Part shown: piece after piece, positions 19,951-64,000 of the stretch
Layout: each line of letters starts with the position of its first letter
Numbering within the stretch: position 1 is the first letter of the stretch
NCBI GenBank assembly: GCA_905221615.1
Contig: CAJNDT010006139.1
Coordinates: 62,001 to 126,000 of the forward strand
Length of the DNA: 64,000 nucleotides
DNA from: Symbiodinium sp. CCMP2592
Taxonomy: Eukaryota > Sar > Dinophyceae > Suessiales > Symbiodiniaceae
Direction of reading: 5' to 3'
Program-made: the position numbers and the translations under genes
The notes under the pieces: generated by a model
The model's input: only the letters and a program-made list of their open reading frames with translations
What the model was told of the DNA's origin: nothing
The model's database searches: none

Positions 19951-19989
<39 letters not shown>

Positions 19990-20070: not shown

Positions 20071-20111
<41 letters not shown>

Positions 20112-23011: not shown

Positions 23012-23204
23012 CTGGTCGGGGGGTTGTCCTCGGCATCTGGAGGCGAGCCTCGCTCCGGACAAACCCCCGACCTTACTACCCCCGGGTCCCCGATTGAAAC
23101 AAACTAAATTAGCGGCGACTTGCGCGTCTAAAACCCCATAGACTCCCAACAAAACAACAACAGAGAACCAAAGTATCCAACACAAAACCCGAATCGGGGA
23201 CCCC
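23012..23204. repeat. Nested inverted repeats
   Basis: GGTCGGGGGGTTGTCC (23013) pairs with GGACAAACCCCCGACC (about 23056); inside is a smaller foldback around GGAGGCGAGCCTCGCTCC. Separately GGGTCCCCGATT (23084) pairs with AATCGGGGACCCC (23192). Confidence 0.7.
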
Positions 23205-23935: not shown

Positions 23936-24175
23936 AGCAACGCGCCCTAAACCCTAAACCATAAACCCTACTAAACCCTAAACCCTGCTAAGCCCTAAAC
24001 CCTAAACCCTAAACCCTAAACCCTACTAAACCCTAAACCCTACTAAACCCTAAACCCTAAACCCTAAACCCCACTAAACCATAAACCCTACTAAACCCTA
24101 AACCCTGCTAAGCCCTAAACCCTAAACCCTAAACCCTAAACCCTACTAAACCCTAAACCCTACTAAACTAGGGGT
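23936..24175 (-). repeat. CCCTAAACCCTACTAAA array
   Basis: Two copies of a block of about 115 bp mixing CCCTAAACCCTACTAAA, CCCTGCTAAGCCCTAAA and ACCATAAACC. Followed at 24180-24340 by a short GC-rich unique stretch without a clear ORF. Confidence 0.8.
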
Positions 24176-24399
24176 GGCAGGCCGGTGGGCCCTGTCGGCC
24201 CACCGCTGCCGAATCCCCCCCAGCAAGCGGCTTCCATAGCATCGCACATACAATACGCCTGAACAGCGCTTCAACTGTCTTACCAGAGGGTCAGCCGTGC
24301 CACCGCTAAGCAGTGGGTCGCCGTCAGTACTGACCTAATAATATAATTAAACCCCAAACCCTGCGCAGAATGACCCCCAAACCATAAACAAGTCGGTGC

Positions 24400-26936: not shown

Positions 26937-29018
26937 TCAATCGCATCTAGCGGGCACGCAATGCTTTCTTTCAATGCGGCCGAGGAATTGCCAACTTTCG
27001 TCCTTTCGCACTCGAGAGATAGCGACGTACGCCGCCCCTCTAACGAACGGAACATCTAGCCAAATCGTGGCATGATCCAAAGTTGCCCCTTGAATTTTGT
27101 GCAGAGTGCTGCTGTACCCTAGTCTCAGAGGCAATGCTGTGACCCGTCGCACAGACCCGTCTGCCAGCTCGTAGTCTTGAGTGACGGCATGGACCAGTGC
27201 GACTTTGCCGTTGTCCAACAAGACCTGCAGCCCACTGCGGCGCATCTGCTGCACAACTCCACCCATGCCATTGACGAAGCCGTGCTCTTTGTCTTCGTTT
27301 TTTGTGATTGTGACACGCATACCGGGGAATATGGGCATTCGGAAAGGTTCTGCATCCATTCTAGTCTGGCCGTGAAAGTTGCGATGGTTCTCTTCCGGAT
27401 CGGCAGGCACATAACCCAGCAATTGGGTCTCGTCGAAAAGCGCTTCGATCGCCAGCTGGTTCAAGTGAGCCGAAGCTCGTCGGGAAATGGTGACAAACTG
27501 AGTTGTGGGAGTCCTTTGCAGGATTTTCGCCACATTATCTGCCGTTGGCATGTTGTCCGAGCCACAAGCACTATGTTTCTTCAGGATCTTGCGAAGTTGC
27601 CGACCGGAGGGTGTGGCGCTGCGGAGTAACTCCAGCTTCCAGCGAAGCTGACTGCATTTGCAGCGTCTCATTGTGCGAAGATATACTTTGCCCACCTCCG
27701 GCCACCGTGCACTCTGCTGAGCCGTCGTTCCGTCAGGCCCCGTCAACTGGCAGAAGTCACCAACCAACACCAGTGCAGGACGACGGTCAGCAGCGTCCCA
27801 CAATCGCAGGATACGTTCGAAAATCCACAAAGGGACCTGCCCAATCTCGTCGATCACCACCAAGTCGTATATGTTCATCATTTCGAGCGTGGTGACTTCG
27901 TCCTTGTGCAGCGCGAACATGCCGTGGATAGTGTCCACATCCAGGTCCGGGTTGTCGATCCTGTACTTGGATGCCAGAAGCCCCGTAGGGCAGGCAACAC
28001 CCACGTGCGCCCCGGCTTCCACCGCTCGGCGGATGGCTACTTGCACGGCTGTGCTCTTGCCACTTCCGGCGGGGCCGAGGATGGCTGTGACACGCTCCCC
28101 TGCAGATTGTCTGTCCACCTGCAGGTATTGCCACCAAGAAGCTTGATTGTTGTCTTCCGGCCACCTGCATGCGAGCGATGTGTCGACTCTCTCAGCGATG
28201 ACGCGTGCTGCTAGCTGCTGCTCTGGTGCCAACCTATCGAAGTCGGGCAGCACGGCGGTCACGCCTGCCGCCTCGGATCTTGGCAGTCGCGCCGGAGCAG
28301 GGACTTCTCCTGCAAAGTATGCGTCGATGAGCTCCGTTCTGGCCCGTATCACCTCCAGCGCGTTGGTGATGTACAAGTCGGTCCTGGCCTCCAGCTGCAG
28401 TTCGCTTGCGATGCGACGCGGGTTTCGCCAAAAGTCCGGTCGGCGTAGAAGGCAGAGGCCAAGGAAGCGAAGCTCCTGTGGAAGGCAGGTAGCTCGGTCG
28501 TCCCAGAGGTCGGCTACGTCTCGGAAAGGTACGTGCAACAGTAGCCACTGTCCGAAATGGAAGTCACTGTAGCAGGAGTACATGATGCAGGCGACCAGAA
28601 CTTCTCCTTCCGCTGTAAGAGTGTTGATCCAGTGCGTCAGCGGCATTTCGACCTTGCGAGCCTTGTGTAGCCGCCGGTAGCGCTGGGCAATTTGTCCACC
28701 CGAGCCGGACACCCGTAGGTATTCGATGAGACTCATGCTTCTTCGTCGCCAGGAGCAATCCATATAATTCCGAACCTCCTGCGGCATCTCCTTGTTCCAG
28801 GGCACCGGCACCACGAACTTGCGGACGACCGCCGGGCACAGGAATTGAGGGTGCTGCTGTGCTGCTAGCTGCATGACCATTTCAGGTTGCAGTGGGTGAT
28901 AGTCGGACAGGATGCGCCTCGCCAGAGCGAAGCCACTGGCTTGATCGTTGAGCAATTCCTGCGCGAAGGAGCTGGAAAACTTCGGAAGGTAACCTTGCGG
29001 CAAGGCAGTGCGTTTCAT
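26937..29018 (-). CDS. Helitron Pif1-type DNA helicase
   Basis: 693 codons. Residues 1-250 continue the Rep-to-helicase linker of Helitron proteins. Superfamily 1B motifs follow: Walker A GPAGSGKST at about 315-323, Walker B LVVIDEIG at about 386-393, motif III LVGDFCQL at about 418-425, the motif V region STLHKIQGATL at about 637-647 and motif VI AYVAISRVR at about 663-671. In Helitrons this domain unwinds DNA during rolling-circle transfer. The first ATG here is not a natural start: the same frame is open upstream (HDRLV before MKRT), in the frame that would continue the Rep ORF after a one-frame change near 29060. All helicase motifs are intact, so the copy is fairly young. Confidence 0.9.
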   Translation of the reverse strand: MKRTALPQGYLPKFSSSFAQELLNDQASGFALARRILSDYHPLQPEMVMQLAAQQHPQFLCPAVVRKFVVPVPWNKEMPQEVRNYMDCSWRRRSMSLIEYLRVSGSGGQIAQRYRRLHKARKVEMPLTHWINTLTAEGEVLVACIMYSCYSDFHFGQWLLLHVPFRDVADLWDDRATCLPQELRFLGLCLLRRPDFWRNPRRIASELQLEARTDLYITNALEVIRARTELIDAYFAGEVPAPARLPRSEAAGVTAVLPDFDRLAPEQQLAARVIAERVDTSLACRWPEDNNQASWWQYLQVDRQSAGERVTAILGPAGSGKSTAVQVAIRRAVEAGAHVGVACPTGLLASKYRIDNPDLDVDTIHGMFALHKDEVTTLEMMNIYDLVVIDEIGQVPLWIFERILRLWDAADRRPALVLVGDFCQLTGPDGTTAQQSARWPEVGKVYLRTMRRCKCSQLRWKLELLRSATPSGRQLRKILKKHSACGSDNMPTADNVAKILQRTPTTQFVTISRRASAHLNQLAIEALFDETQLLGYVPADPEENHRNFHGQTRMDAEPFRMPIFPGMRVTITKNEDKEHGFVNGMGGVVQQMRRSGLQVLLDNGKVALVHAVTQDYELADGSVRRVTALPLRLGYSSTLHKIQGATLDHATIWLDVPFVRGAAYVAISRVRKDESWQFLGRIERKHCVPARCD

Positions 29019-29028
29019 TACGAGTCTA

Positions 29029-31530
29029 TCATGCAGGCTGACTGCGTGCGTCCGAGGGGCTTGCGCAATACTTCAGGATCATTGCTCGGCCGTCAGACGC
29101 AACCACGTCCGTGTGGCAGTGCAAGGCGGCGAGCACGTCTGTGAGATAGGCTCGACAGTGCTGGTCGTGAGCATCTTGCGGATGTCGAAGTTCCAGCAAC
29201 CCCGAGCTTTCGGATACCTTGGTGGGTTCCCTGCGAACGGGCCAGCCACTGCTCGTCCAATCCAACTGCGAGCCACGCACCAGATCTCGCAACTCCGGCT
29301 CCGACTCATCGGGAAGATCCGCCCGGATGTTTTCGGAGAGGCTCATGGATGCCATGTTTTCCAGCCAGAGCAGTATGTGCACGTGCACGGTTCCTCGACC
29401 ATGATAGGCTTGGGGCTCCTTGAACTGTCCTCGCTTCCTCTTCCCGTCCTGGAATTCCAGTCGTGCCACCCACTTCCGTACACCTTTGCAGGAGCCCGCA
29501 GAAAAGATATGCTCTTGTCCCTCTCCCTGCAAACCTTCATTGCTGCCCGTGAGAAGGCCCTTCACTGCTTGTGTGAGGACGTGTGCAATATGGAGGGTCT
29601 CGGCCACCGGCAGGTGCAGGCGTGCTTTCAAAGCCTTAACCAGCTCGTCCTCGTGCCAGACATGGTAAGGGAAGCTCCACTCGTAGGGCGCCATGGTGAT
29701 GAACAGCTGCGGCCAGCCAAGCTGTCGCTGCAGGTCCACCAAGGCGGCATGGTAGCCTCGCCACAGTTCTGGCGAATATGGTTTGGACGCCAGGGCCTCC
29801 CTGATGCTGCTGCTAGTCGAGCTCCGCGCTGCCCCAACAGTAGTGAAGAGCCACAAATCGTAAACGAACTGCAGCAAGGTGGGGTCGCCGTTGTAGCCAA
29901 TGACACAGGAATGGGCTTTGGCCAAGAAGCTGGCTTTTGCACTCTGGCGCCCGCGCCCGGTCTCGTCCGCTTCATCTGAACCGGAACTTTCCCAAGCATC
30001 ATTACGGTGTCGGCGCTTTCTTCTTCGAACATCCATTGAGCGCGTGTGGGTTTCCGTCATGTCTGTTTGCCAGTACAGGTGTGGCCACAGGCTGCATTCT
30101 AGACCCACGGTCTCAATAAAATTCACTGGCAACCGCTTGACGGGAGCCCCAGGCCCGATGTCCCCTCTCCTGATCTGCCGCTTGCGTTTTGCGAGAAACC
30201 TATGATGCAACTGCCAGAAGCGGTCGTACGACGACAGATCCGATTTCAGCAGGTACTCCAATGCCTTCTCGCCCTTCTCGCGAGCTTTCCGGGGTAGCCG
30301 CGCCAGGGCTTCTTCCACAGACTCCGTCTTGAAGGAGAAGCGAAGCATGTCCATGTGCACGTCGTATCCATTTGGCGCGCGACACTCGCCGCCCTTGTGA
30401 ATCTGAAAGGGCCGCAGGGCCTCGATGACCTTTGGGGGCAAGTTCCGAAGTCTGTGGGGCACGTCGTCCTTGTTGGGAGCCCAGTATCCTTGGGCGCCAT
30501 CGGATCGGCAGAACTGGCACTGGGGCAAGGTGTTCTCCGTTCGGTTGGTGCCACGGGCATGTTGCGGCTTGTAAGGTTGAGGCACCATGCGGCCGCAACA
30601 TTTGCACATTCTCCAGGACGACGAGGTGCACCAAGTCCTGAATGCGCGAGCTCTGCGCGTCATCCAAGCTTGTTCCGGACGGGTTTTCGGTCCGTATACG
30701 GCCGGAAACTTCTTGGCGAGGCGACGGAGCCTTTCACGTTCGGCGTGCAGGTGTCGCAGTGCTTCTTCCGGAGCCGAGCTGCTCTGCCTATACTTCAACA
30801 ACTCAGCCCAGCGGGGCCTGGCAGTGGCTTGTTTGCCTCTCCGCTTGGCATTGGACCCTGCAGGTGCTGGATTGAGGGGGATCCAGACCTGACAGCCCGC
30901 GGGGTGCGAGTATGGCACGGGCTCATCATATGCGACGACATCTTCCAGGATCCAGGCATGCGGTTTGGAGTACGGGATCTCTGTGAGATCTGCGATGAGA
31001 TGCAGATGCTTTGATGCCTCCAAGTCTTCCACCGTAACAGCCCTAGACTCCTTCACAGTGGCCTCTCCGACCAGCTCGCCGCTGCCGACTTGTGCAATGC
31101 CAACTCGCTTGCCGAGATGCTTTCGACAGGGCGTGCCTCGGATCTCCCATGTCTTGCCTTCGTATAGGATCTTATTGCACCATTCCGGCCTGATCGACAG
31201 AGCCCAACTCAAGGCCGCTTGCCTCCTCACAGAGTCATCGTTCTCCGCATTGATATGAGTATCCACTTCTTCTGGCACTTGCAACGCACGTTCGTCGGAG
31301 AGCAGCTGGTCGACGGCAGCCTTGGTATGCTCATTGAGAAGGTGCATCTGCTCCACAACTTCGTCCATGCCCAGCGTCTCCTGGATTTCGTGCAAGCACC
31401 CGTGGAATCTCTCCGGCTCTGTCTCCGACATTGTGGCCAGCCGTGCCGTCAGCTCTCTCTGCCCAGCATCGAGATCACCATCGTCCTCTCGACTTGGCCT
31501 CCGCAGAAAGCTAGTAACTAGCAGTAGCAC
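29029..31530 (-). CDS. Helitron Rep (HUH) protein with N-terminal ASCH domain
   Basis: 833 codons. Residues about 108-216 form an ASCH (PUA-like) domain: ALSIRPEWCNKILYEGKTWE followed by IRG, with the G-K-x-x-E-x-R signature. A Cys cluster (about 309-341, CKCCGR and CQFC) resembles a zinc finger. The Helitron-like N domain follows, with LWPHLYWQTDM (about 481-491) and WPQLFITMAPYEWSFP (about 606-621). The HUH motif is GTVHVHILLWL (His716, His718), and MILKYCAS (Tyr821) is the catalytic tyrosine region. Helitrons usually have a second Tyr four residues on; here the frame changes at this point and ends after 12 more codons. The nominal first codon is GTG just after a TGA, so translation must begin at the ATG of residue 34 or in an upstream exon. 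The ASCH fusion suggests RNA or modified-base binding (inference). Confidence 0.88.
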   Translation of the reverse strand: MLLLVTSFLRRPSREDDGDLDAGQRELTARLATMSETEPERFHGCLHEIQETLGMDEVVEQMHLLNEHTKAAVDQLLSDERALQVPEEVDTHINAENDDSVRRQAALSWALSIRPEWCNKILYEGKTWEIRGTPCRKHLGKRVGIAQVGSGELVGEATVKESRAVTVEDLEASKHLHLIADLTEIPYSKPHAWILEDVVAYDEPVPYSHPAGCQVWIPLNPAPAGSNAKRRGKQATARPRWAELLKYRQSSSAPEEALRHLHAERERLRRLAKKFPAVYGPKTRPEQAWMTRRARAFRTWCTSSSWRMCKCCGRMVPQPYKPQHARGTNRTENTLPQCQFCRSDGAQGYWAPNKDDVPHRLRNLPPKVIEALRPFQIHKGGECRAPNGYDVHMDMLRFSFKTESVEEALARLPRKAREKGEKALEYLLKSDLSSYDRFWQLHHRFLAKRKRQIRRGDIGPGAPVKRLPVNFIETVGLECSLWPHLYWQTDMTETHTRSMDVRRRKRRHRNDAWESSGSDEADETGRGRQSAKASFLAKAHSCVIGYNGDPTLLQFVYDLWLFTTVGAARSSTSSSIREALASKPYSPELWRGYHAALVDLQRQLGWPQLFITMAPYEWSFPYHVWHEDELVKALKARLHLPVAETLHIAHVLTQAVKGLLTGSNEGLQGEGQEHIFSAGSCKGVRKWVARLEFQDGKRKRGQFKEPQAYHGRGTVHVHILLWLENMASMSLSENIRADLPDESEPELRDLVRGSQLDWTSSGWPVRREPTKVSESSGLLELRHPQDAHDQHCRAYLTDVLAALHCHTDVVASDGRAMILKYCASPSDARSQPA

Positions 31531-31559
31531 TCTTCAACCCGATTATTGAAGGACTGTGC

Positions 31560-32284
31560 CAAACCCTCGCCGGGGTCGCGGCCGCTCGCCGAGGACATCG
31601 GGTATTCCCCTCGAGCTTTTGCACCGATTAAATAGCCTCCCCGACCCTATCCGCGAAAGGACTGAGCGCGAGGCCAAGCATCCGGCGATTCGCTCTGCCA
31701 CCTTCACGTGCTTCTTGATACCAGGATTGCTGGCTACTCACCTGCACTCCCGCCTCCATGATGCATCTTCCCCCTCTTCCCCGGGTGACGACGGCACGCC
31801 GGACCGAGAATTCTCGCCACACCTGAAGCTCGCGACTAGATCTGAGTGTTGCTAGACACCGACTTCGAGTTGAGCTCCCGGCGTGATTCCCTCCATGAGT
31901 TCACCTTCAAGAGGCAGAATGACAAGACTTCCTATGTGTCCAGTAACGTGCGCACGATTGAGCTGTCGACGATCTTGCGATGGCTGGCCACGGGCAGATA
32001 CGAATTTGGCGCAATCTGTTTCTACAGAGTCTTGATTGAATCTTGAATCTTAAACAGCTTCGTCTGCACCTCCAAGCATGAGCTTTCAACTCCTGTTCCA
32101 CACGCATCGGGCTTACTCTCCATGTCTGCTCATTATTGCTTCCATCTGAACTTAGCAGTGGCTTATAGTATGGCTCAAACTACTAAGCAAAACCCTAACT
32201 GCAGAAACTGCGTTTGCACTGCTGGACAGCTCGTGTTGTTGCTGAAGTGGTAGAGCATCACAACGGCATATTAATAAGAAAAAA
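31560..32284. other. Region between Helitron Rep and right array
   Basis: Not telomere-like. The plus strand is open at 31850-32046 (DTDFELSSRRDSLHEFTFKR, then SSNVRTIELSTILRWLATGR), a protein-like stretch of unknown family. The minus strand at 31556-31640 reads GIPDVLGERPRPRRGFG, perhaps a 5' exon of the Rep gene. Neither can be settled by eye. Confidence 0.35.
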
Positions 32285-34365
32285 AAACTGCCTGCGGCCG
32301 CCCAGTCTGTCCCCGCCGGGGCGCGTCTGTCCCCTATCTTGCTTTGCTTTTCCTCCTAGGGAAGAAACCCTGCTTGCCGCCGGCCTTTCCTGGGGGACGC
32401 GTCTGTCCCCTGTCTTGCCTCCTTCGTCTACTTATGAAAAACCTACCTGCGGCCGCCCAGTCTGTCCCCGCGAGGACGCGTCTGTCCCCCGTCTTGCTGC
32501 CTTCGTGTCCGTTTTAATAAGAAAGGAACCTACCTGCGACCGGTCCTCCTGTGTGCGGGGACGCGTGTGTCCCCTGTTTGCTTCTCTCCTTCTCTTACGA
32601 ATAATAAAAGAAACCCTGCCTGCGGCCGGCCTGTCTGTCCGCGGGGACGCGTCTGTCCCCTGTCTTGCTTTGCTTTTCCTCGGATTAACAAGAAGAAGCC
32701 CTGCTTGCCGCCGGCCTTTCCTGGGGGACGCGTCTGTCCCCTGTCTTGCCTCCTTCGTCTACTTATGAAAGACCTACCTGCGGCCGCCCAGTCTGTCCCT
32801 GCGAGGACGCGTCTGTCCCCCGTCTTGCTGCCTTCGTGTTCGTTTCAAAAAAAAAGGGACCCACCTGCGACCTGCCCTCCTGTATGCGGGGACACGTCTG
32901 TCCCCTGTCTTGCCTTTTTCGTTCTCTTGTTAATAAGAAGAAACCCTGCCTGCGGTCGGCCTGTGTATCCGTGGGGACGCATCTGTCCGCTGTCCTGCTT
33001 GCTTTTCCTCCTATTAACAAGAAGAAACCCTGCTTGCCGCCGGCCTTTCCTGGGGGACGCGACTGCCTCCTGTCTTGCCTCCTTCGTCTACCTATAAAAG
33101 ACCTACCTGCGGCCGCCAAGTCGGTCTCCGCGAGGACGCGTCTGTCCCCCGTCTTGCTGCCTTCGTGTTCGTAAAAAGGAAAAGGAACCTACCTGCGACC
33201 AGCCCTCCTGCGTGCGGGGACGCGTCTGTCCCTTGTCTTGCTTCTCTCCTTTTCTTACTAACAATAAAAAAAATCCTGCCTGCGGCCGGCCTGTCTTTCC
33301 GTGGGGACGCGTCTGTCCCCTGATATTAACAAGAAGAAGCCCTGCTTGCCGCCGGCCTTTCCTGGGGACGCGTCTGTCCCCTGTCTTGCCTCCTTCGTCT
33401 ACCTATAAAAAACCTAGTTGCGGCCACCCAGTCTGTCCCCGCCGGGACGCGTCTGTCCCCCGTCTTGCTGCCTTCGTAGTATTACTTATTTTAAAAAGGA
33501 ATCTACCTGCGACCTGCCCTCCTGTGTGCGGGGACACGTCTGTCCCCTGTCTTGCCTTTTTCGTTCTTATTAGTAAGAAGAAACCCTTGCCTGCGGCCGG
33601 CCTAACTATCCATGGGGACGCGTCTGTCCCGTATCTTGCTTTGCGTTTCCTCCTATTAGCAAGAAGAAACCCTGCCTGCCGCCGGCCTTTCCTAGGGGAC
33701 GCGTCTGTCCCCTGTCTTGCCTCCTTCGTCTACTTATAAAAGACCTACCTGCGGCCGCCCAGTCTGTCCCCCGAGGACGCGTCTGTCCCCCGTCTTGCTG
33801 CCTTCGTGTTCGTTTTAATAAGAAAGGAACCTACCTGCGGGGACGCGTGTGTCCCCTGTCTTGCTTCTCTCCTTTTCTTAATAATAATAAAAGAAATCCT
33901 GCCTGTGGCCGGCCGGTCTATCCGTGGGGACGCGTCTGTCCCCTGTCATGCTTTGTTTTTCCTCCTATTAACAAGAAGAAGCGTCTATCCCCTGTCTTGC
34001 CTCCTTCGTCTACGTATAAAAGTTCTTATTAATAAGAAAGGAACCTACCTGCGACCGGGCTCCTGGGTGCGGGGATGCGTCTATCCCCGGTCTTGCTTTT
34101 TTTCGTTCTTATTAATAAGAAGAAAGCCTGCCTGCGGCCGGCCTGTCTATCCATGGGGACGCGACTGCCCCTATCTTGCCCTTTCGTCCTCCTATTACAA
34201 GAAAAGACTGCCTACGGCCGGTTCCTCCTGGGGGGACGCGTCCGTCCCCTGTCTTGCTTCTTTCCTCTTCTTATAAAGAACCACCTACGGCCGCCCGGTC
34301 TGTCAGCGGGGATGCGTCCGTCCCCTGTCTTGCTTCCCTTAGCTTCTTGTTAAAAAAGAAAGGAA
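32285..34365 (+). repeat. Higher-order tandem array, right of Helitron
   Basis: About 22 subunits of 75-110 bp, each with GGGGACGCGTCTGTCCCC (an inverted repeat) plus TGTCTTGC and a polypyrimidine/A-rich tail. Four subunit types follow in fixed order, so a unit of about 330 bp repeats: the type with CTTGCCGCCGGCCTTTCC starts near 32373, 32704, 33033, 33344 and 33675. Long plus-strand ORFs (for example 32214-32768 and 33212-33739, Pro/Leu/Cys-rich) are by-products of stop-poor units. Confidence 0.9.
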
Positions 34366-53114: not shown

Positions 53115-54252
53115 TAGCAGCCCCACATCTTGACAATTTAGCAGGTGCTCCGCAGCACAGATGCTTTGATTTCTGGTGCAACTGCCCAGTCGAAGGGTGG
53201 GACAGGGCATCTGCGACAACAGAGGAGCTCTGTGCCAAACAGTCCGCTACATGCACACCCTGCAACCCTGAACCCAAAACTGTAAACACTCAAGCATCCA
53301 ACAACTTAAATGCTCAAAGCACCCACACCTTCCAAAACCCCTACATTAAGGAATAGAACTCGAATCGTATCAGGGATCCTACTACAAATAAGTTGAAGTA
53401 TACTCCTTAATTGAAAGCTGTTGGATGGTCTGGGCACCAGTAGCCGCAGGATCTCATTTCTTGTTTTGCTTTCCCCCGCTGCAGCTGCTTTGAAGCGTTA
53501 CCGCCGGGCCAGGTGTCGGAGCTTCATTCCTACGAGAGTGGCTTAGGGCTTAGGGGTCTGGAGGCTTTAGGGCTGCGTTTCGGGATTTAGGGTTCAAGCT
53601 TCACGCACCCTTAAAGTGTAGGGTTAGGTGTAGGGCTGTGTTAGAAAGGCTGAGTTTTGGTGACACTGGGCTGGGTTTAGGGCTTGGGGTAAGCTAAACC
53701 TTTACACTGAAAGCTGCGAAACGCGCAAAAGCTGCGACACACTCCGAAAGCTCTTCATGTAAGCTATACAAGAAGGGGTTAGGTTCCCAGAGACTCTAAT
53801 ATCCCTTGATTAAGGATTATACCATAAGTTATAGTAGGATCCCTCATACGATTTAAGGAACGGTGCCTAGATTAAGGGATATTGGAGTCTCTGGGTTTAA
53901 GGTTTAGGGAGCTGAAGGAAAACATCAACAGCTTTCGAAGCTTCGGCGCATCTCGCTGCTTGCGGAGCTTCTTGCGGCTTGCGCAGCTTTGGGGCAGGAG
54001 ACTAATGATTAAGCAACCTTGGGAGGGCTCAGAACACGGACAAGAGCGTCCGATAGCTGAACGCCCCAGGCGCAAAAGCGTCGATTAGGAGCCATAGGTC
54101 CTCCCTCTCCGGCCTGGCACCGACACCTGCGAGCACGCCGAGCCCGCGTTCGCCGCCGCATACGGCAAGGGCAGTCTTGTTCTGACTCCCGTCTCCGCTT
54201 GGTTGCGGAACATCACGGCTCTGCCCCGCTGCAGAAGCAGTGTGCTTTCCGC
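53115..54252. other. Strand-switch region, telomere-like repeat ends here
   Basis: Contains the last telomere-like tracts (53535-53690), a CCAGAGACTCC-family element at 53787-53893 (CCCAGAGACTCTAATATCCC to AAGGGATATTGGAGTCTC), then GC-rich sequence with no repeat. A minus-strand exon may lie at 53115-53220. Genes left of here read leftward, those right of here rightward. No promoter motif recognised. Confidence 0.55.
53787..53893. mobile_element. CCAGAGACTCC-family element, near-complete
   Basis: Both arms present, 107 bp, centre AAGTTATAGTAGGATCCC. The rightmost copy in the window. Confidence 0.85.
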
Positions 54253-55299
54253 ATGGGCCGCCGACCGCCATGGAAGCGAGAATCGGCGCACGCCTACTCA
54301 TATTGGTCTGGTGCGGATGCCTACCGATCGCCCAAAGCCAAGGCGGCTCCCAAGAAGAAAGGTCCTGCCTTTCCTGCGTACGACGACATCCCTGCGGAGG
54401 AGCTGGCGATTGTAGAGGTCTCCACCAGGCCGGCCCCGGCGAGTGGCTCGCAGAAAGGGGGCATGGTGCAGGATGTGCAGCAGGCCGTCAATGCGGCCAG
54501 GAAGATCGACCAAAAGCTGGCGAAGCTCCAAGGAGAGCTCATCGACAAGGACAAAGCTTGGGTGGCCTATATTCACAAGATGATTCGGTCCTTCAAGGCG
54601 GAACGCTCCCGGCATATGCAGCATCAAGCCAAGCTGCGTGCGGAGATTACCGACCTAGAGTCTCAGAGAGATGGGGCCTACCAGAATGTCCAGCAAGTGG
54701 CCCTCGTAGCCACGGGTGTGATTCCCAAAGGAGCACAAGTTGTGGGCATGGATGTGGAGGCCGAGGAGGACGACTCCGCCTTTGGGGCGGAACTGGTTCG
54801 CATGCTGCAGGAGGCTGTGGCCGCGACCGGGACGGCACCCGCAACGCCAGCGCCGGTTGTGACACCGGCTCGCCCTACGCGGGTTATGCCACGCACTCCA
54901 CCCCGTTTTCAGGAGCCACCTGGAGATGTTCCTGCTCATGTGTCGGATCCTTATCTGACCTCTCCTGGAATGGCGCACTTCGGGATACATTCGTCTGCCG
55001 GTGGCGAGAACAGTGCGCCCCCTCCTACAGCGCCGGTTCCCATGCATGGCGATGTGAACGCTGGGGCACCTCCCGGCCTTACCGAGCGTCTGTCAGAAAA
55101 GCGACGCCAGCAGCGGCGTGCTCTGGCGCCCTTTGGCTTGCCTCCGCCACCGGAAGCCTCCACGGTGGCCAATGCCGACGATCTCTCTGCAGCGGCTGCT
55201 TTGCCTGTGCGAACGCCCGGAGGGACCCGCATCATAGACGACGACCTGGACGAGGAGCTACAGACAGCAACATCCCCGGGCCTGGGCAATCTGGAGTGA
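54253..55299 (+). CDS. ORF1 of giant LINE-like element, coiled coil
   Basis: The ATG at 54253 gives 348 residues; the frame is open from 54061 but has no earlier ATG. Begins MGRRPPWKRESAHAYSYW, a basic/aromatic start; then a Lys/Ala/Pro tract, a coiled coil at about residues 80-150 (KIDQKLAKLQGELIDKDKAW, RSRHMQHQAKLRAEITDLES), an acidic stretch, and a Pro/Ala-rich tail ending in an acidic cluster (IDDDLDEELQ). This architecture resembles LINE ORF1 RNA-binding chaperones, but no RRM or CCHC knuckle is visible. The following ORF lies in the -1 frame and overlaps. Similar proteins occur, to my recollection, in Symbiodiniaceae gene models; unverified. Confidence 0.6.
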   Translation: MGRRPPWKRESAHAYSYWSGADAYRSPKAKAAPKKKGPAFPAYDDIPAEELAIVEVSTRPAPASGSQKGGMVQDVQQAVNAARKIDQKLAKLQGELIDKDKAWVAYIHKMIRSFKAERSRHMQHQAKLRAEITDLESQRDGAYQNVQQVALVATGVIPKGAQVVGMDVEAEEDDSAFGAELVRMLQEAVAATGTAPATPAPVVTPARPTRVMPRTPPRFQEPPGDVPAHVSDPYLTSPGMAHFGIHSSAGGENSAPPPTAPVPMHGDVNAGAPPGLTERLSEKRRQQRRALAPFGLPPPPEASTVANADDLSAAAALPVRTPGGTRIIDDDLDEELQTATSPGLGNLE

Positions 55300-58200
55300 C
55301 ATCTGTCTTGTGCTATGGCAGCACCGGGCCCCTGACTATCCGTTTGTCTTGCCCTAGACAAGCCGGCCTGGCGGGAGGTTGTGAATCGCGATTGACTGTG
55401 GTGGAGTCAATCCTTTTCACCAGCCCCTTCGGGTCCGACAAGTTTAGGAGCTGGACGCGGATTGGTCCCCTGAGTGCAAGTGAGACAGCTGCGGGTAGTT
55501 GCTTTCTGTACATAGTGGTCTCCTGTCGAGCTCTCTCTGGGCTCACTGTCTGCCCTGTCCATACTGGCAGCCTCCTCTCCGCGACGTGCCTTGGCGGACC
55601 TGCCTGGATACAGCATTGGCTTTGTGCTGTTTTCTGGTGCAGGTCTCCGCAGTCTTCCTCGCGGGATCTTCGTAGTCACTGGGCTTGTGACCTCGAAGTA
55701 TCTCCCCCGCCTGAGCAGTCTCTCTGCTCCGCATATGGCCTTTCGCAATGGGAATGCCTTTCTCCCTCTGCAGGGATTTTTCGACCGTGGTTAGTGGCGT
55801 GCCGAAGAGAAGCATCGGTGGCTCTGGGGCTTCCACCCACTTCATGGTCCCTTTTCTGGCCCTTGGTTGTCCAGGCCTTTGTTTGTGCCCTGGGCTTTTT
55901 GTGTGCTGGGATTTACTGTGCATCAGCACGCAATTTTGAATATGCACCCTTCGAGGATTTCTGCGTGAGGTTTGGGTCTCGCCTTTGGCCAACGCTTGAC
56001 CCTGTCAGACCCGCCTTGAGTCCCACTTTTTCGCACCACATACTGCTCAAGCGGTTTTATGCGGTGTTAGCTTTGTTCCTCTTTGGTTGCCAGGTGGGAA
56101 GATGCGCAAGCTCTACTGTGCCCCTTGACTGGGCTGAAGAACAGGCTGGGTCGGTCCTCTGCGGCCTCCGTTTCATCGCCCTCTCTTGCCTAGTTATATT
56201 GTGGGCTGATCAGGCATGTCGCTTGCTGGGATTCAGGTCTCTAGGTTGCTGCCGCCCGGCCCTCTTAAGGTTAGCTGGTGCCGGTGTTTTGCTGCCTGTA
56301 AGGACCACTACCTGCTCAGGAGGCCGTCCTTTGCGTCGCGGGACTGCCTTTCGGGCCCCGCCAGCAGCCAACTTCCAGGGGCGTACGTCGCCCAAATCGC
56401 TTTTTCGGTTCACGGGGCTGGCTTGGCTGTTCGGGTTTGTTTCCCTACCTCAGCCAGTTAGCGCAGCCTGGCTTCCCAACCCTTCTTCGATTGTGCTGGC
56501 CGGTTGCACTGGACCGGCAGGGCTTCTTCACCTTGCGTTGGCAGCCCCTGCAGCTGGTGTCCGTTCGACCCCATCACGCCCGCACGACGTTGACCTTGCT
56601 GAGCTTGCGCATCATGTTGGCCCGCCGCTACTTGCCGCTGGCCCGCGTGCTCTCCCTCCTTTTGGACGTGAGACTGTGCATCTCCTACGCATATGCGATG
56701 TTACGGCACTTCCGGACCCCATTGGCATTGCTGATGCACGTTGGCTTGGTGTCACCGTGTACACGCCGCATTTTGTGCCACTCCGCCTTGCCGTTTTGTG
56801 TGAACCCGGACAAGGCCTTGAACACGTTGCATCCACCATATTCCGAGAAGCACCGGGCGCGGAGACCGGTTTGCTTGACAGGTGCGTACCTGCCAACCCA
56901 CAGCGATTTGAGGGCTGGTGCACTATGGTACGTTTCCCATCACTTGCTGCCCTCTCCCCAGACGGACCAATGCGTGCCGTCCTTGTGGACTTGTCGTCGG
57001 TGGGCGGACATTATTTTGCCTGTCTGCTGCCAGAGCATATGGACTATGCGGAGTTGCTTCATTTCGCACTCATGCAGGCGTCTTATTCTGAGGTCGACAT
57101 GCTCCTACATGTTGGCAATCAGGCCGAGCCACATCCTTTTGATGCCCCTGTCATGCTACGCGATGGTGATGTCCTCACCTTTCGCCGGCCTCCACAGCAT
57201 TGGCTGACACGGTGCCAGGCTGCCCAACTTTTTCATGCAGCAGCTACGTGGCTTCCTCCTCTCGACATGCCTCGTTTCTCCCCTGCAGTTGGGGTACTGG
57301 TGCACCACGGCGCAGAACGAGTGTTCATGCCCAAACATCACCACTACGGCCAAACCCCTCTGTCTGCCATTTCCTCCATGTGGGATTACGGTGAAGATGA
57401 ATGCACTGTTGGGGTTTTTCCGGTCCACGACCTTGAATACAGGGGAAACCCTTGTTGCCAAGTAGCTGGTGTCGTCAGCCTGCCCAGTTACCAGCTGCAT
57501 GCTCCCGCTTCTCATCGCCGTCGAGATTTCTTCGTATTATGTGACTTTCGAGGCCTCGGATTCGGCGTGAGAGTTGCCTACTCCAATGTCCCCTGGGTTC
57601 ATCTGCCCTCTGTGGCTGGAATGTCAGGCATCAAGATACCCCCTCGCCTGCGCCTCGTTGCTTTGGGTTGGGAGCATTTCGGGGATGAAGTAAGGCTTTA
57701 TGGACATGACGCTCTGGTTATTAGAGTTGTGCCCGGCTTTCCTCCCATCACCCACAACATCCAGGTCGATCCTCCTGACGACCCAGATGAGGGTCCTGAC
57801 GACAACAACTCCCACCGCAATCAGGGACGGCGTCATGTCTACCCGTTCCTTGTGACCCCGGGTGCGGTTGTTCGCCATGTGCTTCGACACTCTGTCCGCA
57901 GCAGGTCACGCTCCAGGGATAGATCTGCTTTGCTTGTTGGGTGCTTTCATCCCTTGCGTCAGTTTGATGTGCGAAGGCGGGAAGGTGTCGAGCCAGCTGT
58001 ATGCCATTCCTTCCTTCAGGTTGGATCATGCGGGAATCGTCATCTAAGGCCCTCCTGCCTGTTTGCTCCGTCTCCGATTGCGGATCTAAAGCTACTTCGG
58101 GAGCCCACGTCCCGCAGTCTTGCTGATCGCGATAGGCTTGACCATGCAAGAGACTTCACTAACCGTGCTGGCCGTCAATGGGGCTTCCTCCCTGCTGAGG

Positions 58201-61200
58201 ATGACCCTGATGCTTTCCACATTGTCGAGGAAGGGTCCGAGTCCGAGCTTGCACCAGGTGAAGAGGGTGAAGAAGAGTTCACCTTCTTCCTGCTCAGGAT
58301 TGATTATATTCCAGAGATTGTGACCCTGATGCTTGTGGCACCCGTCACAGTTCAGGATGCGCTGGCGCTCATACCTGCAGTACGGGATCCTGTCAGTTCT
58401 CGGCTCTTCCCATTGCTTGTGAACGTGGACCCCCAACCCTCTCAGGAGTCAGGGCTTCTGCTGTCGCTCCCTGGCTGGGCTGGCACCGAGATCGCTGTCT
58501 GCTGTGATTTAACTAGTTATGACGGCCGCATTTTTGCTGCCTCGGCACCTGCCTCCGCTTCGCGGGAGGCTCTTCTAAGCATCTGCGAGTTGCCGTCTGA
58601 TGCGGCCGTTGATGTATATGTTGGTGCCCAGGGTTTCCCTCTTCAAGGTGAGACTGTGCCTCTGTATCTGGGCGCCTACATCTCAGTGATCCGCCGCTTT
58701 TCATTGCCAGGCCCACTCTTCGCCCTGCATGCCGTGTTACAGGACTCCTCAACGTGGGATGCGGAGCCGCCGCTTCCGATTGGCCCTGCCGGTGGAGGTT
58801 TCTGTGCGGTTGGCGAACAGGGGCACCGTCGCATACCGGCTGCTGCTGATTCCATCTTTGTTGACGGAGGTATCCTCGCAGAGGCATTTTCTATTCCTCT
58901 CACCGAGCTCACTGTCCAACCAGCCATTCCGGTTTTAGGGGACGTTGCCTTGCGTGGTATATACTGTCGCAATGTGTGCGCGGTTGCTACAGCGCGGGAT
59001 CCACGCACTCTCCTGCCGGCGCCTGACCTTCTTGCAACGGTCGTAGACTGCCGAGCCTTGCTTCAGGGTTGGCTTCTTTTGACCTCAGTGGACGGTCGTA
59101 CCAGTCGTGCGGACCTGGAGACTGTGCTTGCGACATTTGCTCCGGTCGGATGGTCCCTTCATCTTGAAGGACTGGTTGATCAAGATGAGGATTGTCATTT
59201 TGTGGCGGGCCGACCCGTGTATGCATCCTTCGTGCCTACCCCAATGGATGAACGGGCTATTGAAGGGACTGAGCCTGGAGATAGTGAAACCCTCTCCGAC
59301 GACGAAATGGCGGTTGATGACGCCCCCGAGGCCCATCCTGCAGATTCCCCTCCTGGACCGGCCGAGCCCGGGTCTTCCCTCCTCAGGGACAATCGCCATC
59401 GCAGCCGCTCCCCGCGGGGTCCCAACATGCGCAGTGACCCTCCGTTTCTAACCAGTTTCCTAATCCTGGCTCAGGAATATGCCCCTGAGGTTGTAAGCCT
59501 AGATTTGGAACCCTGGACAACCACTAATGAGGTTCTGCGTAAGGTACGGGAAGGACGTGCTCCCCATGCCCAACGCAGATTCCCCAAGCTTTGTCCCGTT
59601 GAACCACAGACTCTAGAAAGCTATGCAGTCCTGCTTGCCAGCCCCCTATGGTCCACCCACGTCAGTATTGTGCTCGACTGCACTCGCGTCGGTGGCGGCA
59701 TCTTTTGTTGGATAGCCTCCCCAGCCCTGGATCGTGAATCGATCGTCGCCATATCCGGGGTGCCGAGCACCGAGCAGTTCGATGTATTCGTCCCCAATGT
59801 TGACGCTCCGTTGCAGCCGCGACAGGAGTGCCGCCTCGCCAATGGCAGCTGCATTACCCTTTTGCCTACCCCTGGACCAGGTTTTAGGCCCATGTCGTTT
59901 GAGGCCAGGCTTGCCTCCTGTCCGCGGGGTTCTGACGATACCTTGCTAGTTGTGGCGGGCGATTGGGTGCATGTCATCACTGATGCAGGACCGGAGACCT
60001 TCCAGCATCCCGCTAATCGAAGGCGCTCTTTGGGAGATGCGATTGCACGCTTTCTTCGGCTACAGCCCAGTTCTTTCTGTGTACAACCGGCCTTTCCGCG
60101 AGTGCAGGACTTTTCGGACTCTGGTCGCCTGGCCCACGAGGTTTTAGCGGTCACGCAGCAACATTTGAGGAGCCCCGTGACCCGGGAGGATGGCTGCCTG
60201 TATTTCTTGGATCTGCGCCCGTTGCTTTGCGGCGTCACTTGGGCTTTTACGTCGGATCGCACTGTTTCCCGGTCTCTCCTTCTTGCGCAATGCGCCCGCG
60301 CCTTGCCTGCCGGCTATCGCCCCACTGTCCGAGGGGGACGTATGATCCCTGATGACACTACTATGCTAGAGGTGCACCCAGGCGAAGTCCTGACCGTCGA
60401 GGCTTTCCAGGCAGCGGAGCCCCTCCCTGTCGGAGACAGTTCTGCATCTCAACCTAGCGCTCAGGAGGCGCCCAATGAGCCTCTCCCCTCCACAGGGACG
60501 GGCTCCGCCTCCTCCTGCCCGCCTCATACCAGAGGCCATACAACTGCCGTTTATGATACCCATAGGCAGGGTCGTGCTATGTTCATCTTAGGTAAGCTTC
60601 GTCCTGCCGCAGCTACGGCCCCCATGGGCCCACATACGCTGTATCCCAAGGTAATTACCAGGCTACATCTGCATGGCGATCGAGTTATCATGTGGCTAGC
60701 TGCTACGCGACATCACGCTCTTCAGGAGAGCAAGCGGCTGGTTACCTCTGTACTCTCGTCACAGTGCCCTGTTCTGTACACAGGGGACAGTTCGAAGGAC
60801 GTTGCATTTCCTATGGCCCCCTGCTGCAATGGAGATGACAGGAAGCTTGGGCTTGATCCTGATGACTCTAGCCCTGCTTTGGCTGGGCGGTTCCCCATCA
60901 CCGGTACCTTCGCCGTGCCGTCCCTGCTGAGTGGCCCTAGCGCTTCGTGTCTCTGTCCCTTGAGCCTACTCTATGTAGGGGATCAGGTTTCACGAGTACA
61001 GGGTTCCTTGACCTTTTCTGGCGGTGTCTTCGCTGTCCATGCCGCGACCACTGCTAGTTCTGTGCCCGAGCTGACGGCGGTTTTCTCCTCTTCGCAGCTT
61101 GCGCAAGCCTTCCTTGAAAGGGTTACTGCTCGGCTGAGTATACGGCCCTCTGGCTATGTTGGTGCCTACATTGTATGCAAGTGGCTGGTCGAGCCCACCT

Positions 61201-64000
61201 CTTCCTCACAAAGCTCGCGCCTGGCCCTTGCATCTCTCCGCCGTGTTGCTCCACAGCTTGGACAGCACTGGCGCTATCTCCCTGCTGAGGATGCTGAATT
61301 CCTCTCTGAGATAGATGCCTCCGAGGACTCCAGCGAAGACGAAGCACCCGTCCTCCGCACTGCACATTTTGGGATCCTAGTAGGGGGCTATACGGTTGAG
61401 CACGTTAGCATCGAGGTGTACTTTCCTGCAGTTCTGGCTGAGGTGCTGCCCCTGGTGCGCCACGCGCGGGCGGCACCCGCCTCCGAAGACTTCCCGTGTC
61501 TCGTTGCAGCAGACCCCCAACCATGTTCGGGGGTTGGGGTCCTGTTAGGCCTAGCGCAATGGCAACGTTCCCAGAACGCGGTCTGTCTCAACTTACTGCC
61601 ATTTGATGGCAGGCTCTTCTCGGCCTTTGCCCCCGACTATATCTCTCGCCAAGAGATCCTCGCATTAGCCGACGTGCTGCCGGGTTTAGGGGTTAATGTC
61701 TTTGTAGGCAGTGACCTCTTGCCTCTGGATGACGGTGTATACTGCCAAACCCGCACGGGCCTTACCATCACTATTACACCGCCTGACGAACCACTCCCAA
61801 CGCCTTTCTCCTTGCCGTATCTTTTACGGTCTAGATTTGCATGGAGTGACACGGACACTCTCCCCGGACAACCGGCAGCTGACTCATACTGTCTTGTCAC
61901 GGAGGGGGAGACTGTCCTCTTTATATCCGACCCAAGAACACCAACAGAATACCGGCGACAAATTGCCAACTGCCTTGGCATACCTTTCTCTACCCTACAC
62001 CTCACCCCTGCGTCGCCTAGAGTACATAATGCTGCCGTGGAAGGTCTAGCTTGCCGCACTGTTCTAGCGGTGTGTGACGCACCTGCCTTACAGGGCGGCC
62101 TCTGTCATTGCGTGCTCTTGGATCAACGGGCCTTGGCTCTAGGCTGGCGGAATATATTGGCTTTTCGAGGCCACGTTTTCTGCCCTGCTCTCCTTGCAGA
62201 GCTTAGGGACCTAGCTCCAGGCGGATATGCCCCTTACTTGGAAGGGGTTCCAGCAGCGCGCAGCCATATTGCTGTTGCTGAAGGTCAGGTTCTCGTAGCT
62301 CGGCTCATGCCTATCGCTGACTCTGCGCCACCGCATGGTGCAACTTTCTCTGCCCCATCTGATGGCGTTGTCCAGCTTCCCCTGGATGATGCCCCTGGCC
62401 ACACTGCTACGGCCACTGAGGCATCCAGCGCATTACGATCGGGTACCCAATCTGCCAGCGCCTCCTTCTCTTCGCCGGCTAATGCTGCCCGAGCTAGTGG
62501 CCCTCCTTCATCGGCTGACCCCTCTGCGCCCGTGGTCGCAGATATGACGCCTGCTTTCCGCAACCTCTCTTTTGTGATACTGGTGCCTGACTATTCCCCT
62601 GAGTTAGTGTCAGTCCGTACGGTCATGCCGGCCACCTTGCACGCCACTTTGGCCCTGGTCTCTGCTGGCAGACTGCCTTTGCGAAGACTACGGTTTCCAA
62701 GGCTGCTGCCTACCCTTTTTCAAACCATCCCAGGTATGGCAACCTTGATCGCCGTCCCTCCCTGGGCACACAGCAATGTTACCATTGCCATCGACTGCCG
62801 AATGTTTCACGGCAGTTTCTTCGCGGCTTATGTGCCTGCCTCTACTGCAGTTGCGGCCCTTTTGCGTCTTGCTAGGGTGCCAACTGAGGCTGACCCTCTG
62901 GTCTTCGTGGGGGATGTGCCTTGGCCAGCGAATAACGCGGGGTTTGCTAACCTTTCTGAAGGCGACATGGTCCAGATTCTCCCGCGTAACCACGCGCCAT
63001 TGGCTGTCACTACTCTGGAATCCATGCTGCAAGACGCTGACTGTTGGCATGCTCCCCCTGGCTTGCCGGAGGCGTTCACTGAGCATGTTTGGGTCGTCAA
63101 CGCCAATTCTAGCTTTCTTCATGAGGTGCGCCCAGGAAGATGGGATTTTCTCCGTGTTGACATTGCGGCCCTTCTAGAGACTCCTGCAGCTACACTGCGA
63201 TTCCGTGTGGCGGCACCAAGTCTTGACAGTCTATCGCGGCACGGGTTTGATGTCTGTGCTGTTATTTCGGCAGACTATGAGACCATCGACGCTGCGGGAT
63301 CTCGTCCCGAAATTTGCTTCTTAGACATGCGGCCAATCCTCCTCGGCGTCTCCTGTTTCCCTATCAGTGGTGACTGGCTGGACGAGGATCTCTTGATAGG
63401 CCGCTTTTTGCCTCGGTGCCCGGAAGGCTATCGGGTAGCACTTTCCACTGGCGACCATCCTCCCACCCTCCCGAGGGCGGGTATCCGCATTGTTGAAGGT
63501 TTGGTTGTTACTGTGGATTTTGTGCCTCGCAACGTCCAAGCCACTGACTGGATTGTGCTCAGCTCTGCGGATCCCGGTTCCCCGGCACCTTCTACCGGGT
63601 CCCATGGCTCGCCTTCTGATGCAGACCAGTTGGACCGGGACCGCCCTCATAGGTCTGGGCAGGATGCCGGCACCGGTGGCTCCGGAAGTGCTGGAGCGGG
63701 CGTGCACCATCGGGCCTTACCCCCCATAGCGGCTTCTCGGCTGAGGGCATTCCTTAGCCCCGTTTTTCTTGCGCAGCACCCTAGCCTTCCCTTGCACCGC
63801 ATCGACGGGACAAATAAGCGCGTCTTCTCCCTCTGTGGAGGTACTCCTGGCTTTCCGGCATACAAAGGGGGTTTGCGCAGGATTGCCCTCGCCTGCCTAG
63901 CCTGTTTGTGGACGCCTGACCTGGTTCATGTATGCTTGGGGATTGCCGCTAAGCTTACTGCCCTGATAGGCGTCTGCTTCCTTGCAGGTTTTCTCTGCCT
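55260..64000 (+). CDS. Giant ORF2, partial, six repeated modules
   Basis: Codons starting at multiples of three are open from 54186 to the window end without a stop (about 3,270 codons); I checked every line. The part after ORF1 is over 2,900 codons. Order: Cys/Trp-rich region with hydrophobic, membrane-like segments near 55860 (FVCALGFLCAGIYCA), 56040 (FYAVLALFLFGC), 56160 (IALSCLVILWA) and 56400; then six divergent copies of a roughly 390-residue unit from about 56.76 to 63.53 kb, joined by acidic or Ser/Pro-rich linkers with RSRSP-type motifs; then another hydrophobic block from 63870 (LRRIALACLACLW). The first in-frame ATG after ORF1 is at 56925, so expression needs a -1 frameshift, splicing or re-initiation. 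It is probably the N-terminal part of a retroelement polyprotein whose nuclease and reverse transcriptase lie beyond 64 kb (inference). No catalytic motif is seen. Confidence 0.8.
56760..57740 (+). other. ORF2 repeat unit 1
   Basis: First half with HFVPLRLAVLCEPGQGLEHV and AVLVDLSSVGGHYFACLLPE; second half with FFVLCDFRGLGFGVRVAY and ending VIRVVP. The most diverged full copy. Confidence 0.65.
58280..59245 (+). other. ORF2 repeat unit 2
   Basis: FTFFLLRIDYIPEIVTLMLV, then AVCCDLTSYDGRIFAASAP and VDVYVGAQGFPL; second half TVVDCRALLQGWLLLTSVDG and ending VYASFVP. Preceded by an acidic linker. Confidence 0.8.
59445..60405 (+). other. ORF2 repeat unit 3
   Basis: FLILAQEYAPEVVSLDL, then VSIVLDCTRVGGGIFCWIAS and FDVFVPNVDAPL; second half YFLDLRPLLCGVTWAFTSD. 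Preceded by a linker with RHRSRSPRGP. Confidence 0.8.
60580..61210 (+). other. ORF2 repeat unit 4, shortened
   Basis: FILGKLRPAAATAPM opening, then a diverged core (RVIMWLAATRHHALQES) and a second half around SGGVFAVHAATTASSVPELT. Shorter and weaker than the others. Confidence 0.45.
61355..62320 (+). other. ORF2 repeat unit 5
   Basis: AHFGILVGGYTVEHVSIEVY, then AVCLNLLPFDGRLFSAFAPD and VNVFVGSDLLPL; second half CVLLDQRALALGWRNILAFR and GYAPYLEGVP. Confidence 0.8.
62555..63530 (+). other. ORF2 repeat unit 6
   Basis: LSFVILVPDYSPELVSVRTV, then VTIAIDCRMFHGSFFAAYVP and PLVFVGDVPWP; second half CFLDMRPILLGVSCFPISGD and VVTVDFVP. Unit spacing to unit 5 is 1.2 kb. Confidence 0.8.

What the first reader, a model, noticed from the sequence alone, without database searches (positions are those of the whole stretch)
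54186..64000. Over 3,200-codon stop-free frame running off the window, with six divergent copies of a two-part module
One plus-strand frame has no stop from 54186 to 64000. From 56.76 kb it is built of six units (about 390 aa; four starts near 58.28, 59.45, 61.36 and 62.56 kb). Each has half A (φxφDxxxxxGxxFAxxxP ... VxVFVGxxxxPL) and half B (CxφLDxRxLLxGW ... PxGYxP), joined by acidic or Ser/Pro linkers. Pattern conservation with low identity means old duplication under protein-level selection. I know of no described function for such a module; it could be a retroelement-borne structural or binding array.
Basis: partly seen in the sequence, partly recalled or inferred. Interest (0 to 1): 0.88.

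Follow-up and report, generated by a model that had tools for sequence, protein, structure and literature searches.

The report
Giant LINE retrotransposon with ubiquitin-fold array
The long stop-free frame belongs to an unusually large 15.9-kb jumping gene of a coral-symbiont alga, whose giant enzyme protein carries a repeated module that looks ubiquitin-shaped and begins inside, and in a different reading frame from, its own first gene.

Summary
The frame is real and longer than reported: 5,233 codons, ending at window 69,887. It is ORF2 of a complete non-LTR retrotransposon (54,024-69,924; 13-bp target-site duplication). Two sister copies, 98.6-98.7% identical at both ends, sit at unrelated sites. 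The C-terminus has RNase H, AP endonuclease, RT, then C2H2-like fingers.

The repeats are real: five units, not six. Leave-one-out E-values are 1e-42 to 1e-53 for four; the first is more divergent. Selection is purifying. Half A is predicted to have the ubiquitin fold; half B is its homologue. This copy looks like a recombinant of a four-unit and a three-unit element.

Three features were not in the finding. (1) ORF1 (54,253-55,299) lies inside ORF2 in another frame; the first AUG is ORF1's, the second ORF2's, in all 11 copies read; shuffling predicts 12-20 stops in the overlap, 0-2 are seen. (2) Signal-peptide-like and hydrophobic segments flank the array in most relatives. (3) A ~45-nt covarying RNA hairpin without Rfam match lies inside ORF2.

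Known kind (LINE), new architecture. The array's function is inferred.

The parts
54011..54023 (+). 5' target-site duplication AAGCAACCTTGGG; second copy at 69925-69937, outside the window
   Evidence: exact 13-bp match either side of the element
54024..64000 (+). non-LTR retrotransposon, whole element 54024-69924 (15,901 bp), runs off the window
   Evidence: TSD; 5' end (A)GGGCTCAGAA shared with C133, C5351, C5067, C4940 and C1857
54024..54252 (+). leader without any AUG
54253..55299 (+). ORF1, 348 aa plus stop; basic N-terminus, coiled-coil-like middle and acidic C-terminal part (by eye)
   Evidence: conserved in 10 copies; no Pfam family above its cut-off
54270..64000 (+). ORF2, 5,205 aa from AUG 54270 to stop 69885-69887; its first ~340 codons overlap ORF1 in the -1 frame
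54270..54341 (+). signal-peptide-like start MEARIGARLLILVWCGCLPIAQSQ
   Evidence: similar starts, judged by eye, in the other copies
55788..55860 (+). structured RNA motif inside ORF2 (helices P1 and P2, conserved loop AUCGGUGGCUCNGGG)
   Evidence: core pattern 27 times in the genome, control 0; covariation; no Rfam match
55863..56201 (+). hydrophobic segments ahead of the array (aa 560, 619, 654 of the frame)
   Evidence: Kyte-Doolittle
56751..57725 (+). unit 1 (divergent)
   Evidence: family HMM 271 bits; 20-22 bits with window-only HMMs that hold the last unit, 8.7 bits without it
58284..59231 (+). unit 2
59457..60401 (+). unit 3
61368..62303 (+). unit 4
62571..63521 (+). unit 5
58470..58700 (+). 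half A of unit 2, predicted ubiquitin-fold domain; half A of the others at 56937-57194, 59643-59873, 61554-61787, 62757-62990
   Evidence: model made for unit 2; the others by alignment
58908..59240 (+). half B of unit 2, homologous to half A; half B of the others at 57402-57737, 60075-60413, 61995-62315, 63195-63530
   Evidence: own model (of unit 3's half B) gave weak matches
61161..61368 (+). approximate recombination joint between a C133-type N-half and a C5351:851905-type C-half
63882..64000 (+). hydrophobic segments behind the array (aa 3233, 3255, 3277; the last starts at 64014); RNase H motif at ~64743, endonuclease motif at ~65586, RT YADD at ~67881 lie beyond the window

Best explanation
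A lineage of giant, recently mobile non-LTR (LINE-type) retrotransposons of Symbiodinium. Shown by sequence: one element carries two overlapping frames; the first AUG opens ORF1, the second, 17-68 nt on, opens ORF2 in the -1 frame; the ORF2 frame is kept free of stops across ORF1; ORF2 encodes, in the own copy, a signal-peptide-like start, hydrophobic segments, five repeats of a two-half unit, more hydrophobic segments, then RNase H, AP endonuclease, RT and C2H2-like fingers; copies are flanked by target-site duplications of about 10-14 bp. Predicted: the unit halves are ubiquitin folds. Inferred mechanism: scanning ribosomes partly leak past AUG1, making much ORF1p (coiled-coil-like, probably RNA-coating) and less ORF2p. 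ORF2p is threaded into or held at a membrane (ER or the persistent dinoflagellate nuclear envelope), the ubiquitin-fold array serving as a self-associating scaffold that gathers ORF1p-RNA. The C-terminal enzymes then insert a copy by target-primed reverse transcription, the RNase H removing the template. The internal RNA hairpin is probably a cis signal for assembly or translation.
Against: Membrane targeting is weakly supported: the hydrophobic start does not exceed synonymous shuffles in every copy (P 0.000-0.251; 4 of 10 below 0.05, one at 0.050), so it may partly follow from ORF1's own sequence. In the sister pair the overlap shows 0 synonymous and 4 nonsynonymous changes in the ORF2 frame (3 and 1 in ORF1), so ORF2's amino acids there are not shown to be constrained, only its openness. 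14 of 48 proteins lack the segment behind the array, 6 of 21 the one ahead. The start-context difference (purine at -3 in 3 of 10 distinct AUG1, 7 of 10 AUG2, read off) is too small a sample to count. The unit model has mean pLDDT 55.9 and only ~71-140 is good; Foldseek's best E is 0.056. No expression data. The own RT matches Pfam only at E 0.02, under the cut-off.
Confidence: 0.5

Rival explanations
1. Same retrotransposon, but ORF2p is an ordinary soluble nuclear protein: the hydrophobic stretches come from composition and ORF1 constraint, and the ubiquitin-fold array is a docking site for host proteins (ubiquitin receptors, proteasome or segregase) or a spacer.
For: Shuffle test for the signal-like start significant in only some copies; hydrophobic segment missing in 14 of 48 proteins; ubiquitin folds commonly serve as docking domains (recalled).
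Against: Excess of hydrophobic segments just behind the array, P 4e-14 against control windows, and segments ahead in 15 of 21.
Confidence: 0.3
2. ORF2 is expressed by -1 ribosomal frameshifting late in ORF1 or by reinitiation, not at the second AUG.
For: The frames differ by -1 in the copies read, and many retroelements use -1 shifts (recalled).
Against: A late shift would not need the -1 frame open over all of ORF1, yet it is. In C4940 the only -1 stop lies between the two AUGs, and in L051 one of the two does. No in-frame AUG exists between 54270 and 56925, although protein conserved between copies begins before 56751.
Confidence: 0.1
3. An envelope- or capsid-like system: signal peptide, membrane anchors and a repeated ectodomain-like array make particles that leave or cross membranes, so the element is a virus-like LINE.
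For: Order signal-like start, hydrophobic, array, hydrophobic, polymerase; bacterial multi-ubiquitin proteins with filament structures are among the top rows.
Against: No protease, fusion peptide or virion gene recognised; no Pfam match of note in the array; topology unknown.
Confidence: 0.1
4. A host gene or dead repeat remnant with a fortuitously long frame.
For: Symbiodiniaceae LINEs have been described as likely remnants of an ancient expansion (PMC8045281, passages).
Against: TSDs, open frames of 4,213-5,233 codons at nine places, dN/dS well below 1.
Confidence: 0.01

Closest known systems
SymbioLINE-Dnmt (de Mendoza et al. 2018, PMC5890265; passages read)
   Same: Symbiodinium LINE with an ORF upstream of the RT ORF, TSDs, conserved UTRs, no poly-A tail; lineages called old and active.
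   Different: Theirs has a cytosine methyltransferase in ORF1; none found here. The passages read describe no ubiquitin-fold array, overlapping ORF1 or structured RNA; they do not say clearly where an RNase H lies in it.
LINE-1/jockey-type APE non-LTR retrotransposons (recalled)
   Same: AP-type endonuclease plus RT in ORF2, coiled-coil-like ORF1, TSDs.
   Different: 15.9 kb and 5,205-aa ORF2; RNase H ahead of the endonuclease instead of absent or behind RT; ORF1 wholly inside ORF2; module array.
Giant retroelements (Terminons, Burro; PMC6431247, passages read)
   Same: Large size and accessory domains; Burro is said to carry ubiquitination-related extra domains, Terminons coiled-coil and transmembrane ORFs.
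   Different: Those are Penelope-like and Gypsy-like, not APE-type non-LTR; no tandem ubiquitin folds in the passages read.
Ubiquitin-fold tandem proteins (linear ubiquitin, ISG15, bacterial multi-ubiquitin proteins)
   Same: Tandem ubiquitin-fold domains.
   Different: No detectable sequence family and no C-terminal Gly-Gly after half B in the aligned units (sequence).

Membership tests
APE-type non-LTR retrotransposon (LINE) | reverse transcriptase of LINE type | tested here: met
   motifs [FY]xDxxxAYY, RGTRPG, GPxKT and HLGS in 5 of 5 aligned copies, YADD in 4 and FADD in the fifth; Pfam RVT_1 only E 0.02, below cut-off, in 1 of 5; clade not determined
APE-type non-LTR retrotransposon (LINE) | AP-type endonuclease in the same ORF | tested here: met
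   PF03372 above cut-off in P0061 and P0065; own copy by motifs only, no Pfam hit
APE-type non-LTR retrotransposon (LINE) | variable target-site duplications, no LTRs | tested here: met
   13, 14 and 11 bp, the end base ambiguous in two and one of low complexity; the two ends of the element differ in sequence
APE-type non-LTR retrotransposon (LINE) | A-rich or simple-repeat 3' tail | tested here: inconclusive
   short GAAAGAAAG or GAATGAAA before the TSD, no poly-A
SymbioLINE-Dnmt | DNA methyltransferase in ORF1 | tested here: not met
   the ORF1 frame of the own copy gives no methyltransferase match at E 1
ubiquitin-fold (beta-grasp) domain, half A | beta-beta-alpha-beta-beta fold superposing on ubiquitin | tested here: met
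ubiquitin-fold (beta-grasp) domain, half B | same fold | tested here: inconclusive
ubiquitin-like protein modifier | C-terminal Gly-Gly for conjugation or cleavage | tested here: not met
   no Gly-Gly follows the last strand of half B in the units aligned
virus or enveloped retroelement | envelope, protease or capsid gene | tested here: inconclusive
   no Pfam match of note in the array or in ORF1; topology not testable

The most novel reading that the evidence does not exclude
A membrane-borne LINE: the second-AUG polyprotein enters the secretory pathway, its ubiquitin-fold array polymerises into a shell or filament around ORF1p-RNA, and the element moves within or between cells as a virus-like particle, a route that I do not know for non-LTR elements.
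Probability: 0.1. Interest if true: 0.95.

Novelty: new variant of a known kind. Interest (0 to 1): 0.8.

Why it matters
It widens what a LINE can be: two to three times the usual length (usual length recalled), an array of two-half units predicted to be ubiquitin folds, RNase H ahead of the endonuclease, an ORF1 nested in another frame inside ORF2, a possible secretory start and an internal structured RNA. It gives a clean case of long overprinting kept by selection, and of module exchange by recombination between element lineages. My literature searches listed no title or abstract start that describes such an element; the library holds only open-licence papers, and I read passages of three.

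Tried and rejected
Six units: rejected; the sixth I tried (aa 2181-2345) matches no other unit and the family HMM finds five. BLASTP self-comparison gave no rows; HMMs did. The (TTTAGGG)n tract about 300 nt downstream as element tail: rejected, it lies outside the TSD. Pfam and PDB sequence matches for the unit: none meaningful. Module search in 5.8 billion proteins with the four-unit alignment: 0 hits at E 0.01 among 8,000 scored; a longer query with its own length range found 19 among 7,999 scored. Rfam for the RNA motif: none at E 1 in 12 of the 18 fetched copies; at E 5 in window 53500-57000 seven matches, all at 53733-53911, off the motif. The motif was not found by pattern in L051. All-pairs profile scan timed out. 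The first stop-count test on the own copy used a wrong ORF1 frame and was redone.

Not settled: total copy number (searches scored 52 of 962 and 29 of 1,811 candidates); which LINE clade the RT belongs to; whether 11 of the 27 motif sites lie in elements (of these, ten were fetched for 161-181 bp, the second C3757 site not; C279 has an RT match 7.3 kb downstream by coordinates).
Full report
WHAT WAS CHECKED. The frame from 54186 is stop-free to the window end, while the other five frames of the stretch hold 78-156 stops. The window is G000:C5277:62001-126000, in a 1.1-Gb genome; the frame continues outside it to 5,233 codons. The genome is probably Symbiodinium tridacnidorum CCMP2592: contigs of 662,535 and 472,055 bases match contigs of named CCMP2592 proteins P0057 and P0056; the species name is from PMC8045281 (passages).

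WHAT IT IS. A 13-bp duplication (54011-54023 and 69925-69937) brackets 54024-69924. Two other copies, C133 and C5351, are 98.7% identical over 7,158 bp from the 5' end and 98.6% over the last 699 bp; similarity stops at the same bases and the flanks are unrelated apart from short simple repeats. The middle of C5351 was not fetched. The C133 copy spans about 14.7 kb. Each has its own short duplication, 14 bp (low complexity) and 11 bp, the end base being ambiguous. The C-terminal 1,633 aa of the own copy and four relatives (40-47% identity) keep the catalytic motifs of RNase H, AP endonuclease and RT, then C2H2-like fingers (motif names recalled). Pfam confirms RNase H in P0061 and P0053 and endonuclease in P0061 and P0065 above cut-off, with RNase H ahead of the endonuclease in P0061. 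The own copy reaches RVT_1 only at E 0.02 and no endonuclease or RNase H family at E 1; RNase H matches 3 of the 5 copies, best 1.5e-4. It is a non-LTR retrotransposon with an unusual domain order.

THE UNITS. Leave-one-out HMMs find the four main units at 6.5e-42 to 1.6e-53; the first unit scores 20-21 bits in three of the four leave-one-out runs and 8.7 bits in the fourth; the shuffle maximum is 4.0 bits over 200 shuffles. A family HMM iterated on 77 proteins (72 database hits plus five genome copies) gives 136 matches with domain E below 1e-4, some of them halves of one unit; 49 of the 77 proteins have a match at 1e-3 and 28 none. The own copy has five full units; C4940, C133, C1269, P0060, P0065, P0068 and P0069 show four, many others two or three, partial models one. 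Between lineages synonymous sites are near saturation (pS 0.73-0.85) while pN is 0.14-0.34; in the 5 of 18 unit comparisons where dS could be computed dN/dS is 0.05-0.12. In the sister pair dN/dS is 0.25 over a stretch from just ahead of unit 1 to just behind unit 3 (P 4.7e-7 on rounded counts).

RECOMBINANT. In 100-aa bins along the own protein, identity to C4940, C133 and C1269 is 52-72% from aa 800 to 1700 (one linker bin at about 30-35%), 39-59% from there to 2100, and mostly 20-40% beyond. The RT part instead is 74-75% identical to C435, C5351:851905 and C802. The element at C5351:851905 matches the own frame well only from aa 2326 on (55%), its other matches being 25-27% between units, and it has three units. 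The own five-unit array thus looks like three units of a four-unit type joined to the last two of a three-unit type. One search scored only 52 of 962 candidates, so an undivided ancestor is not excluded.

OVERPRINTING. ORF1 (ATG 54253, stop 55297-55299) is conserved in 10 copies. ORF2's frame is -1 to it in all of them. Shuffling synonymous codons of ORF1 1,000 times gives 12.2-17.3 expected -1 stops, and never fewer than 4. Observed: 0 in 9 of 10 copies (one a sister copy) and 1 in C4940, where the open frame begins 29 nt after AUG1 and the first ORF2-frame AUG is at +68. An eleventh copy, L051, has 2 against 19.8, one before its second AUG and one at the ORF1 end, which breaks its ORF2. In C5187 ORF2 is broken further on. 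The +1 frame shows about the expected number of stops in 8 of 10 copies and fewer in C702 (6 against 10.4) and C4940 (7 against 11.1). No AUG precedes ORF1's in the 228-260 nt examined (four of these copies without a recognised 5' end), and the next AUG is ORF2's, 17-68 nt on, in 10 of 10 copies and in L051. Purine at -3: 3 of 10 distinct AUG1, 7 of 10 AUG2 (read; too few to count).

MEMBRANE FEATURES. By eye each ORF2 start read is followed by a hydrophobic run of the signal-peptide kind. Against synonymous shuffles the excess is P 0.000-0.251 per copy, below 0.05 in 4 of 10, so part is explained by ORF1. A hydrophobic 19-mer (Kyte-Doolittle at least 1.6) starts 20-220 aa behind the last unit in 34 of 48 proteins against 45 of 322 control windows (P 4e-14), and in the 250 aa ahead of the first unit in 15 of 21, without a control. 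No topology predictor was available.

RNA MOTIF. DNA at 55788-55860 is 92-98% identical between the own copy and C133, C5351, C1269 and C5067 over 47-63 nt, while the flanks give no blastn match of their own there. A match was found in 10 of 10 copies, weakest in C5187 and C1112 (75-78%). The 24-nt core pattern has 27 genome matches and 0 for the control; 16 of them lie on the same strand within 3 kb upstream of a unit match, by coordinates. In C1857 the core is read in another frame, and its distance to the unit-1 match is 979-982 nt in C1857, C4445 and C4973 against 956 in C133, C1269 and C5067, so a nucleotide-level function is likely. On 27 aligned copies (26 distinct; 18 were picked by the core pattern, which fixes three of the helix-2 bases on one side) the two-helix model pairs 86.5% of cells (99.2% in helix 2); one pair shows four Watson-Crick types (AU 11, CG 10, GC 3, UA 2). 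The covariation score is 0.459 against 0.156 for shuffles (0 of 500 reach it) and 0.08-0.20 for slid versions; the number of further pair types does not exceed shuffles (20 against 20.4), and the four outer pairs of helix 1 fail in 8-12 of 26, partly because some copies lack the bulge. No Rfam family matches. Function unknown; assembly or translation control are guesses.

DISTRIBUTION. Of 53 database proteins related to the C-terminal part and 19 related to the N-terminal part, those that bear an organism name are Symbiodinium; most bear none, and only the candidates sharing most words were scored.

NOVELTY. A known kind of element with an architecture I found in no paper listed by my searches. 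SymbioLINE-Dnmt is the nearest relative in print that I saw (passages). The passages seen of the giant-transposon review show no giant APE-type LINE.

Noticed in passing
window 26937-31533, minus strand: Two long minus-strand frames (834 and 711 aa) overlapping at 29029-29072; the 711-aa one has an AAA_30 helicase match (E 1.8e-15), the 834-aa one a weak Helitron_like_N match (E 0.039): possibly a Helitron RepHel split over two frames.
   Followed up: no
window 32271-34336: Tandem arrays (periods 76-85 and ~330 bp) around the palindrome-like GGGGACGCGTCTGTCCCC, next to those minus-strand frames.
   Followed up: no
window 17285-26241 and L009:7233-7292: Many degenerate TTTAGGG (telomere-type) tracts inside the contig, one about 300 bp beyond the element's end.
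   Followed up: partly
window 18000-24000: Strong AT skew (+0.27 to +0.43 in 2-kb steps) with a GA-rich tract at 19954-20117.
   Followed up: no
P0034, P0059 (database proteins): Proteins with unit matches deposited under host names (RPS25, abcF4), perhaps gene models that fuse a host gene with the element.
   Followed up: no
G000:C69 and C4940: Second near-identical pair: 96.8% over the 5,622 bp compared; C69 has a much shorter open frame (2,266 against 4,609 codons).
   Followed up: no
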